Shown here: positions 3,678-7,762 of the stretch, in pieces
How positions within the stretch are numbered: position 1 is the first letter of the stretch
Layout: each line of letters begins with the position of its first letter
DNA from: Polaribacter vadi
GTDB taxonomy: Bacteria; Bacteroidota; Bacteroidia; Flavobacteriales; Flavobacteriaceae
DNA: 64,000 bases
Assembly (NCBI RefSeq): GCF_001761365.1
Contig: NZ_CP017477.1
Span: 890,501 to 954,500 of the forward strand
Direction: 5' to 3'
Program-made: the position numbers and the translations under genes
The notes under the pieces: model-generated
Told to the model about the DNA's origin: nothing
The model's database searches: none
The model's input: only the letters and a program-made list of their open reading frames with translations

Positions 3678-5198
3678 CTAAAAACACCTTTCAATCTTTC
3701 CAATCAACTCATCAAACTTATAAGGTTTAAAAATTACATCTGTAAAACCTAAATTTAAATAATTTTCTTTGTGTTCTTGAGTGGCATTTCCTGTTAACGC
3801 TAAAAAAGGAATTTTATTATTTTTTTTAAAAGTAGCTTTTTGCTGAATTAATGTATCTCCAGTAATTTCTGGCATATTAATATCTAAAAGAGCAACATCA
3901 AAATCTTGTGTATTCAATATTTCTAAAGCTTCTAAACCATTTTTTACAACGGTTATTATAACATCTTCTTTATTTAAAATATGTGCTGTTATTTTCTGAT
4001 TCAACAAATCATCATCTGCCAATAAAATTCGTTTTCCTTTTAAACTTTGTAAGGTTAATTTTTCGTTTTCTACAAGTGGTTTCTTAGCAGTTTTCAAAGC
4101 TTTTTTAAACGGAATTTCCACAGAAAAAGTAGAACCAACATTTAATTCGCTTGCTACAGTTATGGAACCGTTCATAGCACTCACCAAACGTTTTACGATG
4201 GATAAACCCAAACCTGCACCACCAAAAACTCGATTATCATCCAACTCAGTTTGCCTATATTCTTCAAAAATCTTTACAGTTTGCTCTTCAGTCATTCCTC
4301 TGCCTGTATCTGTAATTTTGAATCTAATTTCAGCTGTTTTTTTGTTTTCTGATATAATTTCTGTTTGTATAGAAACCTTGCCTTTTTTGGTGAATTTAAG
4401 TGCATTGTTCATCAAATTCGCCAAAATTTGATTCACTCTAACTCCATCACCAATTAAAGTTGCTGGAATGGCATCTGACATAGAAATATCTAAAGCAATC
4501 AACTCATTTTTATGCTGATTTTTAAAATTGACAAAATTGCTTTTTACAACTTGGTTTACATTTATTTCTTCAAGAGCCAATTCTAATTTACCAGCTTCAA
4601 TTCTAGATAAATCTAAAATATCATCTACAATCACTTTTAAATTCTTACCAGATAAGGCTAAATAACTAACATATTCTTTTACTTTACCGCTTAAATCTTC
4701 TTCAGCAATCATTTTTGTATATCCTAAAATTGTGTTTAAAGGATTCCGAACTTCATGACTCATAATTGCCAAAAAACGAGATTTTTCTTCATTGGCTTTG
4801 TCCGATGCTTTTCTTAAAATAGCCAATTCTTTATTTTTTTCTGAAATTTCTCTTTTCATAAAAAACAAATCATTTCTATTTTGATTTAACTCTTTCACAA
4901 TTTTATAAACACTAGTTCTATTATGAATTAAAATGGTGAATTCATCAGCATCTTTAAACAATTCTAAATCTACATTATATTCATTTTCTTTAGAGTTAAT
5001 CATCATTCCTTCCATTAAAAAAGATTCTTTTTCTGGAAGTGATTCTAAAGTACCAAATAAAAAAGGACAGGTTTCAAAAATTGAAGTTTCAACAACAAAA
5101 TCTTCAATAGCAAATTTACCCGCAAGTATTTTTTTAATAATTCCTTGCTGATTGGTCGTTAATTCTAAAAAAACATTTTCAATTTTAGCTGGAGTCAA
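3678..5198 (-). CDS. Hybrid sensor histidine kinase/response regulator
   Basis: A 506-residue soluble hybrid kinase. Residues 1-105 form a sensor-like region (PAS-like by size, no obvious cofactor motif), 108-140 a coiled coil, and the H-box IMSHEVRNPLN has the phosphorylated His at 148. The ATP-binding domain has N-box NLMNNALKF, G1 DTGRGMTEE and G2 FGGAGLGLSIV. A receiver domain occupies about 388-506, with LLADDD, phospho-acceptor Asp in LLDINMP and Lys in FKPYK. There is no membrane segment, so it senses a cytoplasmic signal or partner. It starts 5 bases after the small GTPase gene, as the last gene of that operon. No DNA-binding output is present, so it probably acts by protein contact or phosphorelay. 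Confidence 0.93.
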   Translation of the reverse strand: MTPAKIENVFLELTTNQQGIIKKILAGKFAIEDFVVETSIFETCPFLFGTLESLPEKESFLMEGMMINSKENEYNVDLELFKDADEFTILIHNRTSVYKIVKELNQNRNDLFFMKREISEKNKELAILRKASDKANEEKSRFLAIMSHEVRNPLNTILGYTKMIAEEDLSGKVKEYVSYLALSGKNLKVIVDDILDLSRIEAGKLELALEEINVNQVVKSNFVNFKNQHKNELIALDISMSDAIPATLIGDGVRVNQILANLMNNALKFTKKGKVSIQTEIISENKKTAEIRFKITDTGRGMTEEQTVKIFEEYRQTELDDNRVFGGAGLGLSIVKRLVSAMNGSITVASELNVGSTFSVEIPFKKALKTAKKPLVENEKLTLQSLKGKRILLADDDLLNQKITAHILNKEDVIITVVKNGLEALEILNTQDFDVALLDINMPEITGDTLIQQKATFKKNNKIPFLALTGNATQEHKENYLNLGFTDVIFKPYKFDELIGKIERCF

Positions 5199-5203
5199 AA
5201 GTT

Positions 5204-5689
5204 TTATTTTAAAGATTGTTTGGCAAGAATAGCAAAAGCATCTTCTACATTTTCATTTTCTTTTGCACTTGTAATTAAGTCTATAGGAATTTCAACTATT
5301 TTTTTTACTTGATTTATTTCGTTCAACGTTAACAAGTCTTTTTTGTTACCAACCAACAAAATATCTTTTAAACCCGATAATTCTCTAACAGTTTCCAGTT
5401 GATTTTTTAAATTTAAATACGTTTCTTCTCTATTTAAATCGAACACATACATGGCTGCACTTGCTCCTAAAAAATAAGCTTTTGGTACTTTTTCATCATC
5501 TTTTGTACCTGCAACATCCCAAATTAAAAGTTTAATTTGCTCATCGTTTAAATTTACAATTTTTGTACTTACTCGAACACCAATTGTACTAATATAATCT
5601 TCAGAAAATTCATTTAACACAAATTGCCTAATTAAGGATGTTTTACCAACACCAAAATTACCAACAAGCAGTACTTTTTTTGCAATCAT
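5204..5689 (-). CDS. Rab/Ras-like small GTPase
   Basis: A 161-residue single-domain GTPase of the eukaryote-like Ras superfamily. G1 is GNFGVGKTS (residues 10-18, Lys16), switch I is STIGV with Thr35, G3 is WDVAGT (57-62), G4 is NKKD (114-117) and G5 is TSAKEN (139-144). The catalytic Gln that follows G3 in Ras/Rab (AGQ) is Thr62 here, which predicts slow intrinsic hydrolysis and need of a partner. No C-terminal lipid motif. It lies between a roadblock-like protein gene (11-base gap) and a hybrid kinase gene (5-base gap), as in MglA/MglB-type switches. The direct output is unknown. Confidence 0.92.
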   Translation of the reverse strand: MIAKKVLLVGNFGVGKTSLIRQFVLNEFSEDYISTIGVRVSTKIVNLNDEQIKLLIWDVAGTKDDEKVPKAYFLGASAAMYVFDLNREETYLNLKNQLETVRELSGLKDILLVGNKKDLLTLNEINQVKKIVEIPIDLITSAKENENVEDAFAILAKQSLK

Positions 5690-5700
5690 TATATATCCTT

Positions 5701-6516
5701 TTATGTTGGTACTTTAATTAAAATTTCTTCGATCAAAGCATTTAGCCTTTTTTCGTCTGATAAAAACGATCTATCTCGTAAAATTTTTTCTGCTAATGTG
5801 TTCAAGTTATCTGCTAGTTCTTCTTTAAATTCGGAAGTGATAACACCAGAAGTTGCAGTTGCAATGTAAATAGATTTGAAGTTATACATTGATAATTGAA
5901 ATGTTTCAAATTTTATATCTTCTAAATCTTGTCCTTGTTTTGAAAAGGCATCTTCTGCAAAAGATTTAATTGCGGTTAACATTCCAGAAATCATATCTTT
6001 ATCTGCAATATTACCTCTAGAATAATTACCAATTAACAAACCTGAGTTTTCTTCAATCACAAAAACTTCTTCTATAGTTGATGCAAAAACAGATTGTAAA
6101 ACATCTTCTGCATCTGTTTTTTTTCCTTTAAAAAATCTTTTTAAAATATGTGTTAAAGAAAATTTATCGTTAATGGTTTTGTTAATGGTACCTGAGAGTT
6201 TTGTTATTTCTGCGACAATAAATTTCTGAATCAATTTACCCATAATTGGGTAAAGTGCTTCTATGACTTCGTCTTGAGATTCTCTAATTTGAACTTTTAT
6301 AGCTTGCGTAACTTGATTCCCAAAATAATCGGAAAAATTATCTTTTAAATCATCAATTTTATCATCTAAAACAGGTTTTACTTCTTTTTTGAAATCATCT
6401 TTCTTTAAAAACTCTTTTCTTAAAGATTCAAATTCTTTTCTGTCTTCTGTTAATAAAAGTTCTTTTAGTAGCTCAAATCGATTTTCTTTTTTATGATCTA
6501 CAGGTAGGTTTTCCAT
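5701..6516 (-). CDS. Roadblock/LC7-like protein with helical N-terminus
   Basis: A 271-residue soluble protein. Residues 10-130 are highly charged and helical, including VLDDKIDDLKDNF and a region around residues 80-105 with DEVIEALYPIMGKLIQKFI. Residues about 147-245 resemble a roadblock/longin module: EEVFVIEENSGLLIGNYS, then a helix DKDMISGMLTAIKSFAEDAF, then strands ending SIYIATATSG. Roadblock proteins such as MglB are GAPs or scaffolds for small GTPases, and this gene directly precedes one. Its start follows the previous stop with no gap (TAAATG), indicating tight coupling. The domain call is by pattern; a profile or structure comparison would settle it. Confidence 0.7.
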   Translation of the reverse strand: MENLPVDHKKENRFELLKELLLTEDRKEFESLRKEFLKKDDFKKEVKPVLDDKIDDLKDNFSDYFGNQVTQAIKVQIRESQDEVIEALYPIMGKLIQKFIVAEITKLSGTINKTINDKFSLTHILKRFFKGKKTDAEDVLQSVFASTIEEVFVIEENSGLLIGNYSRGNIADKDMISGMLTAIKSFAEDAFSKQGQDLEDIKFETFQLSMYNFKSIYIATATSGVITSEFKEELADNLNTLAEKILRDRSFLSDEKRLNALIEEILIKVPT

Positions 6517-6870
6517 TTATTCTTGCAACATCTGTGCAATTTTCTCTAAAGCTTTTCCTAATTTTCTTCTATCGGCTTTTTCATCATCTAAATCTGCCAA
6601 TCTTTTGTCTAAATCATCATTCAAATCCTGAAATTTATGATCTACCAAACTCTCTAAATCAGCTAATTTATTTTCGATATTGGCAATTGCTTCAGATAAT
6701 GACTTGGAATTTTTTTCTTGAAGTATATTTATTTTGTCGTAAACATCTGCAATTTCAGAATCATATTTTTGAATATTTTCTCCAAATATAAGGTCTCTTA
6801 CTGCTGCAATTCTAGAATCAACTTGCTGATTAGAAGCTGGTTCATTAGTTTCTTCGGGATTTTTTTTCAT
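6517..6870 (-). CDS. Small acidic coiled-coil protein
   Basis: A 117-residue protein, first gene of the four-gene signalling operon. After a disordered N-terminus there is a conserved-looking block VDSRIAAVRDLIFGENIQ (residues 17-34), and from about 35 to 115 a continuous heptad pattern (IADVYDKINILQEK, ADLESLVDHKFQDLNDDLDK), so a long coiled coil is expected. No catalytic motif or signal peptide. It probably oligomerises or bridges the roadblock-like protein to something else; this is inferred from position only. Confidence 0.75.
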   Translation of the reverse strand: MKKNPEETNEPASNQQVDSRIAAVRDLIFGENIQKYDSEIADVYDKINILQEKNSKSLSEAIANIENKLADLESLVDHKFQDLNDDLDKRLADLDDEKADRRKLGKALEKIAQMLQE

Positions 6871-6947: not shown

Positions 6948-6955
6948 CAAATATA
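6948..6955 (-). promoter_or_regulatory. -7 promoter box for the GTPase/kinase operon
   Basis: On the minus strand this reads TATATTTG, a perfect match to the Bacteroidota -7 consensus TAnnTTTG. It lies 77 bases before the start of the coiled-coil gene, in the gap behind the metallo-hydrolase gene. No good -33 TTG is seen at 17-19 bases. Confidence 0.5.
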
Positions 6956-6979: not shown

Positions 6980-7762
6980 CTATAAAGTAATTTTTAAACC
7001 ATCAAAAGCTAAAAAAACATTTTCAGGTAATGTTTTAGAAACTTCCTCATGGAAACCTAATTTATGGCTAATATGTGTAAAATATACTTTTTTTGGTTGC
7101 AATTCTTCTACAAAATTTAAGGCTTCTTGCAAATTAAAATGAGTTGGATGTTCTTCAATTCTCAAAGCATTAACCACCAAAACATCTAAATTTTTCAACT
7201 TTTCTATTTGCGATTTGCTAATACTTTTAACATCTGTTAAATAGGCAAAATCTTGAAACCTGTATCCTGTAACTGGTAAGTTTCCATGCATAACTTCTAT
7301 AGGAATTACCTGCAAATCATCTACATAAAAAGAGGTTTTATCTACAACATTAGGACAAACACTTGGAGCTCCTGGATACCTATTTTCAGTAGAAAATATA
7401 TATTGAAAACGCTGCTCTAAACTATGTAAAGTTCTCTGATTTAAATAAATAGGCATCCCTCCTATTTGATAACAATAAGGTCTTAAATCATCTATACCTG
7501 CTGTATGATCTGAATGTTCGTGCGTAAAAAAAACACCATTGATAAGCTGCACATTTTCACGCAACATTTGTTGTCTAAAATCAGGACCACAATCTATGGT
7601 ATAGTTTACATCATCCCATGAAATTAAAATAGAAGATCGTAAACGTTTGTCTTTTAAATCTTCTGACAAACAAACAGGATCTTTACTAGCAATCATTGGA
7701 ATGCCTTGTGAGGTTCCTGTACCTAAAAAAGTAATCGTTAACAGTTTTTTATCAGTATTCAT
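6980..7762 (-). CDS. MBL-fold metallo-hydrolase (PhnP-like)
   Basis: A 260-residue metallo-beta-lactamase-fold hydrolase. The motif HEHSDHTAG supplies the HxHxDH metal ligands, followed by MHGNLPVTGYRF and a late FTHISHKLG. An early TGTSQGIP loop and several cysteines fit the PhnP/lipoate-metabolism-like subgroup that cleaves cyclic phosphodiesters, but the substrate is not fixed by sequence. Full-length, no signal peptide, so cytoplasmic. It is divergent from the gene at 7840. Confidence 0.88.
   Translation of the reverse strand: MNTDKKLLTITFLGTGTSQGIPMIASKDPVCLSEDLKDKRLRSSILISWDDVNYTIDCGPDFRQQMLRENVQLINGVFFTHEHSDHTAGIDDLRPYCYQIGGMPIYLNQRTLHSLEQRFQYIFSTENRYPGAPSVCPNVVDKTSFYVDDLQVIPIEVMHGNLPVTGYRFQDFAYLTDVKSISKSQIEKLKNLDVLVVNALRIEEHPTHFNLQEALNFVEELQPKKVYFTHISHKLGFHEEVSKTLPENVFLAFDGLKITL

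What the first reader, a model, noticed from the sequence alone, without database searches (positions are those of the whole stretch)
3678..6870. Four-gene operon: coiled-coil, roadblock-like, small GTPase, hybrid histidine kinase
The four minus-strand genes are separated by 0, 11 and 5 bases and share a promoter-like box at 6948-6955. Seen: G1-G5 of a Ras/Rab-like GTPase, a complete kinase with receiver, and a preceding protein with a roadblock-like C-terminal block. Known: MglA/MglB pair a small GTPase with a roadblock GAP. Inference: the kinase may read or phosphorylate the GTPase state, a switch joining two signalling types. I know of no name for this arrangement.
Basis: partly seen in the sequence, partly recalled or inferred. 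Interest (0 to 1): 0.78.

Follow-up and report, generated by a model that had tools for sequence, protein, structure and literature searches.

The report
Bacterial Rab-like GTPase signalling operon
Four neighbouring genes in a marine Polaribacter-like bacterium form a known but untested type of signalling system built round a small Ras/Rab-like switch protein, and one partner whose fold had been unknown looks like a distant cousin of the roadblock proteins that regulate such switches elsewhere.

Summary
The four minus-strand genes, gaps and order are as described. The arrangement is not nameless: it matches the Group 1 Rup system of Wuichet and Sogaard-Andersen (PMC4316618): a Ras-like GTPase without the G3 glutamine, a coiled-coil protein, a protein with an unknown domain (often followed by a membrane helix and OmpA), and an output protein whose N-terminal region holds one invariant glutamine. 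Tested here: no G3 Gln in 46 of 46 GTPases; the output Gln in 44 of 44; CC, 271-aa gene and GTPase in the same 16 of 59 genomes.

Apparently new: the unknown domain (271-aa protein, core about residues 147-245) matches true roadblock proteins profile-to-profile (scores 29-34; 93 and 97 columns in two comparisons, 35 in a third), against at most 14 for four decoy families and 21 for 100 shuffles. The 2014 paper predicts no MglB (roadblock) partner for Rup.

Best model: the roadblock-like protein is platform and probable regulator of the GTPase; the kinase is its effector.

The parts
6948..6955 (-). promoter-like box TATATTTG upstream of the first gene
   Evidence: read; TATATTT invariant in 12 of 12 aligned upstream regions, TATATTTG in 11 of 12; pattern alone not enriched in the window
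6517..6870 (-). 117-aa helical (CC) protein; carries the VRDLIFG motif (RD[IL][IL]FG type); first gene
   Evidence: (48 aligned, motif visible with variations in the distant members shown); same 16 of 59 genomes as the next gene
5701..6516 (-). 271-aa protein ('ROB'); N-terminal half with LKELLL and ALYPIMG motifs, C-terminal roadblock-like domain; short form without membrane helix or OmpA
5731..6114 (-). stretch compared as roadblock-like domain (residues 135-262; core about 147-245)
   Evidence: profile-profile match to Robl_LC7 proteins
5204..5689 (-). 161-aa Ras/Rab-like GTPase (Group 1 Rup type); G1 GNFGVGKT, G3 WDVAGT, G4 NKKD, G5 SAK
5504..5506 (-). codon of T62, in the place of Ras Gln61 (G3; Ras numbering recalled)
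   Evidence: no Gln at this place in 46 of 46 GTPases
3678..5198 (-). 506-aa hybrid histidine kinase, TTG start, no membrane helix
   Evidence: TTG kept in 12 of 13 congeners read
4881..4883 (-). codon of Q106, the invariant Gln of the N-terminal region of the output proteins
   Evidence: Q in 44 of 44 aligned output proteins
4590..4784 (-). HisKA domain
4104..4451 (-). HATPase_c domain
3693..4028 (-). receiver domain

Best explanation
It is a Group 1 Rup signalling operon, in a soluble form. Shown: gene set, order, co-inheritance, the missing G3 Gln in the GTPase, the invariant Gln in the kinase N-terminal region, and profile similarity of the 271-aa protein's C-terminal domain to roadblock proteins. 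Inferred: the 271-aa protein is a divergent roadblock/longin-superfamily protein that, together with the helical 117-aa protein, binds the GTPase and sets its nucleotide state. GTP-bound GTPase binds the N-terminal region of the kinase (PAS-like by eye only, no family hit) with its Q106 helix. That contact changes kinase output and supplies the missing Gln, so the kinase is effector and hydrolysis partner in one. In most distant relatives seen the roadblock-like protein continues into a membrane helix and an OmpA domain, so the input there is probably the state of the cell envelope. In this lineage that anchor is absent, and the input is cytoplasmic or comes from another, unlinked protein.
For: Membership: published description. 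Co-occurrence: CC, ROB and strong GTPase hits in exactly the same 16 of 59 genomes. Of 8 operon-less congeneric loci looked at, 3 show the upstream flanking gene beside a gene that lies beyond the operon elsewhere (L253 directly; L261 and L271 with one small ORF between), which fits gain or loss as a unit; the other 5 have different neighbours. Roadblock: score 33.9, 93 columns, probability 76.7; same profile against matched pieces only: 30.6, probability 73.5, but 35 columns; decoy families at most 14.3, 100 column shuffles at most 21.05, reversed 12.4; score 29.2, 97 columns, probability 49.5. Weak leads to the related longin fold: TRAPP BET5 as best PDB row (E 0.57), Fuz_longin_1 in 3 and Intu_longin_1 in 1 of 27 members (best E 0.01). 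Own genome has no PF03259 match. Effector direction: among 16 fourth-gene proteins scanned, 6 are kinases with receiver (2 of them with Hpt), 6 plain kinases, 4 sigma-54 activators, all with the Gln. CC and the ROB N-terminal half resemble each other (probability 58.7, 51 columns, no decoy control).
Against: No significant direct hit of the ROB domain to PF03259 or any PDB entry. In one search an unrelated family (GT-B_Sucrose_synth, E 0.0047) scored better than the longin families. A profile of 33 mostly Chloroflexota-type relatives gave no roadblock or longin row among the 60 of 82 PDB rows and 25 of 156 Pfam families shown. Profile probabilities of 50-77% are moderate; GAF against PAS, which I recall as related folds, gave 51.6%, so the match may be fold-level only. 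One of the three comparisons aligned only 35 columns. Three relatives have CC and ROB without a GTPase found within the fetched 15 kb (L093, L094, L096), so ROB may have other work. GAP and effector roles rest on residue conservation alone.
Confidence: 0.6

Rival explanations
1. Conservon-like order of events: the kinase is the sensor at the top, phosphorylates the roadblock-like or helical protein, and the GTPase is the output.
For: Conservons have kinase, roadblock, unknown protein and GTPase; their authors suggest CvnB or CvnC as kinase target and a downstream role of GTP-bound CvnD (PMC13343842 section 17); the 2014 authors posit the GTPase as conservon output (PMC4316618).
Against: The kinase is replaced by sigma-54 activators in 4 of 16 relatives scanned while the N-terminal Gln stays; the window's kinase has its own receiver domain, no membrane helix and no Pfam sensor domain.
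Confidence: 0.2
2. The C-terminal domain of the 271-aa protein is not a roadblock but another alpha/beta fold, and the protein is only a scaffold.
For: No significant direct family or PDB match.
Against: Profile match to roadblock proteins far above decoys and shuffles, over the whole domain in two of three comparisons; strict linkage to a GTPase in relatives.
Confidence: 0.2
3. Chance neighbourhood of unrelated genes with no common function.
For: None found; genes this close are common in compact genomes.
Against: 15 of 15 and 40 of 48 neighbourhoods keep order and direction, with the 271-aa protein down to 32-35% identity in L018 and L019; a conserved upstream box; identical presence pattern.
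Confidence: 0.01

Closest known systems
Group 1 Rup systems (Wuichet and Sogaard-Andersen 2014, PMC4316618; abstract, sections 12, 16, 17, 18 and passages read)
   Same: All four components, the missing G3 Gln and an invariant output Gln
   Different: They call the second protein's domain one of unknown function and predict that Rup does not interact with MglB homologues; here that domain looks roadblock-like. The window's form lacks the membrane helix and OmpA (they say 'often', so such forms may have been in their set). Sigma-54 activators as outputs are seen here in relatives; the passages read name c-di-GMP enzymes and histidine kinases as typical.
Actinobacterial conservons / AGPS (CvnA-D)
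   Same: Kinase, roadblock protein, a further unknown protein and a small GTPase in one operon (PMC13343842, abstract and section 17 read)
   Different: Conservon GTPases are MglA family; CvnB is a plain MglB-type roadblock; the kinase is thought to act upstream; no shared N-terminal Gln or OmpA protein is described in what I read
MglA/MglB
   Same: GTPase with a roadblock partner
   Different: MglB positions MglA's own catalytic Gln and Arg (PMC4316618 introduction passage); this GTPase lacks the Gln, and its ROB is a long two-part protein unrecognised by PF03259
Eukaryotic longin/roadblock platforms (TRAPP, MON1-CCZ1, Ragulator; functions recalled)
   Same: Longin/roadblock domains working with Rab/Rag GTPases; weak hits to BET5 and Fuz/Intu longin
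   Different: Only chance-level sequence evidence; longin and roadblock are described as circularly permuted relative to each other (PMC3521125 passages), so the class is undecided

Membership tests
Group 1 Rup system | Ras-superfamily GTPase with eukaryote-like G1-G5 | tested here: met
   Pfam Ras 6.5e-34; of the 60 PDB rows shown of 904, 57 are named Rab or Sec4 and 3 have generic names
Group 1 Rup system | No Gln in G3 | tested here: met
   0 of 46 have Gln at position 62 (a few genomes are held twice)
Group 1 Rup system | Neighbouring helical/coiled-coil cytoplasmic protein | tested here: met
   helical period 3.65, heptad not specifically shown
Group 1 Rup system | Protein with conserved unknown domain, often with membrane helix and OmpA | tested here: met
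   A hydrophobic stretch (mean at least 1.88) in 13 of 13 long relatives; of 35 short ones 31 have none over 1.6 and 4 reach 1.61-1.71; OmpA in the 3 of the 13 scanned and in many of the 118 hits; the window's own copy is the short form
Group 1 Rup system | Output protein with invariant Gln in the N-terminal region | tested here: met
   Q106 in 44 of 44; that it is the same Gln as in the published logo is inferred, since figures are not held
Group 1 Rup system | Position in the GTPase tree | not tested
   No MglA or published Rup sequences were in the tree
Roadblock/LC7 family | Match to PF03259 over the curated cut-off | tested here: not met
   no PF03259 row (complete tables) or in the first 25 families; own genome none
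Roadblock/LC7 family | Remote profile homology over the domain | tested here: met
   93 and 97 columns columns; controls
Roadblock/LC7 family | Fold and dimer | not testable with these tools
   structure prediction switched off
Conservon / AGPS | MglA-family GTPase with MglB-type roadblock | tested here: not met
   no PF03259 match in the own genome; nearest solved GTPases are Rab/Sec4
Hybrid histidine kinase | HisKA, HATPase and receiver with catalytic residues | tested here: met

The most novel reading that the evidence does not exclude
The unknown domain of Group 1 Rup systems is a roadblock/longin-superfamily domain. Then bacterial Rab-like GTPases, which the literature separates from MglA partly because they lacked roadblock partners, do have one. 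A Rab-like GTPase with a longin/roadblock platform, tethered to peptidoglycan through OmpA and read by interchangeable effectors that lend the catalytic Gln, would be a bacterial counterpart of eukaryotic Rab modules and would fit the proposal that eukaryotic Ras-superfamily GTPases came from Rup ancestors.
Probability: 0.5. Interest if true: 0.8.

Novelty: new member of a known kind. Interest (0 to 1): 0.52.

Why it matters
No Rup protein had been characterised by experiment according to the 2014 paper, and my seven literature searches listed no later experimental work on Group 1 Rup and no roadblock assignment, within the open library and by listings, abstracts and passages only. A roadblock-like partner would join two GTPase branches that the field treats as differently regulated, and makes the question whether Rab-like GTPases had their regulators before eukaryotes testable with purified proteins of a harmless marine bacterium. 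It also gives a likely role to proteins now named only 'cell envelope biogenesis protein OmpA'.

Tried and rejected
Direct PDB and Pfam searches of the 271-aa protein and of its alignments gave nothing significant for the domain (the rows shown are mostly OmpA-type proteins and match the OmpA/BON part). NCBIfam gave only generic names. A tree of Rup against MglA was planned, but no GTPase was found beside the fetched roadblock genes with the Rup profile, so it holds Rup sequences only. In the roadblock set, L106 was read in a wrong frame and dropped, leaving 25; one search used 24 re-derived pieces, which include the L106 stretch in its matched frame; A7 has 23 and leaves it out. These sets overlap, so the three comparisons are not independent. 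L095's output ORF was first taken in a wrong frame and replaced. L047 (contig end) and L064 (no output gene within reach) are not in the count of 44. My notebook speaks of 12 long relatives; one search lists 13. QxRN as a longer motif was rejected: it is in 34 of 44, only Q is invariant. Hydrophobic periodicity of the domain was mixed and is not used as evidence. Considered and rejected: MglA/MglB pair (no PF03259 match in the genome), conservon (other GTPase family), chance cluster.
Full report
What is there. Four minus-strand ORFs at 3678-5198, 5204-5689, 5701-6516 and 6517-6870 are spaced by 5, 11 and 0 bases. Pfam finds HisKA, HATPase_c and a receiver in the 506-aa protein, Ras in the 161-aa protein and nothing over cut-off in the other two. 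None has a membrane-helix-like stretch. The kinase starts with TTG, as in 12 of 13 congeners read. NCBI names for relatives of the 271-aa protein are mostly 'cell envelope biogenesis protein OmpA', although the window's copy has no OmpA domain. The named relatives listed are Polaribacter, and the window lies on one 3.8-Mb contig.

Conservation. In 59 related genomes the 271-aa protein is found in 16: the own genome, 13 of 35 congeners, and 2 of the 23 same-order genomes. The 117-aa protein is in the same 16. The GTPase is in the same 16, with three further weak hits inside ORFs of about 480 aa, two of them in genomes outside the 16. In 15 neighbourhoods read, all four genes stand in the same order and direction, though in L023 the kinase is split into two ORFs. 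In a wider set of 48 loci, which repeats some of these genomes, my reading gives 40 with four co-directional genes (in L047 the fourth is cut by the contig end), 3 with all four but in two divergent pairs (L088, L089, L092), 1 divergent without a CC gene found (L090), 1 without an output gene (L064) and 3 without a GTPase (L093, L094, L096). The gene at 6980-7762 beside the operon (metallo-beta-lactamase-like by my own label, not scanned) is in 57 of 59 genomes. Of 8 operon-less congeneric loci looked at, 3 show it beside a gene that lies beyond the operon elsewhere: a helicase-like gene directly in L253, an esterase-like gene after one small ORF in L261 and L271 (labels by eye). The other 5 have different neighbours. 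The upstream box TATATTT is invariant in 12 of 12 regions aligned.

Name. Wuichet and Sogaard-Andersen (PMC4316618; abstract, sections 12, 16, 17, 18 and passages read) described Group 1 Rup systems in Bacteroidetes, Chloroflexi, Cyanobacteria and gamma-Proteobacteria. Their parts are a Rup GTPase without the G3 Gln, a coiled-coil protein, a protein with an unknown domain often followed by a membrane helix and OmpA, and an output module with an invariant N-terminal Gln. [quoted passage not shown] Here 0 of 46 GTPases have Gln at position 62, and Phe stands at the place of Ras Gly12 in 39 of 46 (the Ras numbering is recalled). The Gln at kinase position 106 is present in 44 of 44 output proteins. 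Of 16 fourth-gene proteins scanned (the window's among them), 6 are kinases with receiver, two of these also with Hpt; 6 are kinases without receiver, one of them with a HisKA match just under the cut-off (L090); and 4 are sigma-54 activators. Long relatives of the 271-aa protein (13 of 13) have a hydrophobic stretch starting at residues 298-362, and the 3 scanned have OmpA. A last protein search found 118 proteins, scoring only the 7994 best candidates, with names from KSB1, Sulfurimonas and other Campylobacterota, Planctomycetota, Caldithrix and Chloroflexota; the last five, with E of about 1e-8 or weaker, are probably OmpA-only matches. The window is therefore a short, soluble form.

The roadblock question. 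A 182-sequence profile of residues 135-262 was compared with a profile of 25 true roadblock proteins fetched by PF03259. It aligned over 93 columns with score 33.9 and probability 76.7. Against matched pieces only (24 sequences) the score was 30.6 and the probability 73.5, but only 35 columns were aligned. Decoys fetched and treated alike gave GAF 14.3, STAS 12.2, PAS 10.3 and GNAT 9.0; 100 column shuffles reached at most 21.05 (median 10.7); the reversed profile 12.4. A smaller pair of alignments from the same pools (27 and 23 sequences) gave 29.2 over 97 columns, probability 49.5. The N-terminal half gave nothing (probability 0.24). Results against: no direct hit to PF03259 or the PDB is significant. 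The best PDB row for the domain is the longin protein BET5 at E 0.57. In the Pfam table two longin families match 3 and 1 of 27 members at best E of about 0.01, while an unrelated family reaches 0.0047. These are chance-level singly, though BET5 and both longin families belong to the superfamily expected. A profile of 33 relatives mostly from Chloroflexota showed neither roadblock nor longin in the rows listed. Longin and roadblock are described as circularly permuted relatives (PMC3521125 passages). I therefore call it roadblock/longin-like, about 0.8 likely, with the class open.

How it may work. In relatives the catalytic part of the fourth protein changes while the N-terminal Gln region stays, which fits an effector that reads the GTPase. 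The missing Gln in the GTPase and the invariant Gln in the partner suggest that the effector also completes the active site; the 2014 authors raised this idea. The roadblock-like protein and the helical protein share an N-terminal motif (profile probability 58.7, 51 columns; no decoy control was run, and helical sequences match easily) and may form one complex that holds the GTPase. In conservons the proposed flow is the other way, from kinase to GTPase (PMC13343842 section 17). The direction, the nucleotide-cycle roles and the signal are inference.

Literature limits. Seven searches of the open library listed no paper that I could recognise as assigning a roadblock or longin fold to the Rup partner or as an experiment on Group 1 Rup; most listed papers were seen only as listings. 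[quoted passage not shown] Subscription papers and supplements were not seen.

Noticed in passing
L018:4777-5424 and L019:11022-11675: In two distant same-order genomes an extra gene before the CC gene encodes a PG_binding_1 domain after a membrane-helix-like start (by eye), as if the peptidoglycan-binding part had become a separate protein.
   Followed up: partly
L093, L094, L096: CC and long ROB genes side by side (OmpA confirmed in L093 only) but no GTPase found in the 15 kb fetched.
   Followed up: no
L059:10003-13361, L060:10000-13366: Downstream of the kinase stand further two-component-like ORFs (receiver-like, large kinase-like, small protein, regulator-like; by profile hit and by eye), perhaps the rest of a phosphorelay.
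   Followed up: no
L088:1473-2933, L095:3351-4751: A response-regulator-like ORF lies just beyond the kinase in distant relatives; the L095 one continues into what looks by eye like a sigma-54 activator domain.
   Followed up: no
L023:5649-7187: The kinase gene is split into two ORFs in one congener; left as it is.
   Followed up: no
L065:9339-10757, L085:3902-5656, L086:9002-10756, L087:3895-5679: The fourth gene is a sigma-54 activator with the conserved N-terminal Gln region, an output type not named in the passages of the 2014 paper that I read.
   Followed up: partly
G309 (L089, L090): One genome carries two copies of the system, both with ROB and GTPase-kinase genes on opposite strands.
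   Followed up: no
window 5196-5198: The kinase start codon TTG is kept in 12 of 13 congeners read, which may hold its translation low.
   Followed up: partly
window 5701-6516: Database name 'cell envelope biogenesis protein OmpA' for the short form is misleading: it has no OmpA domain.
   Followed up: yes
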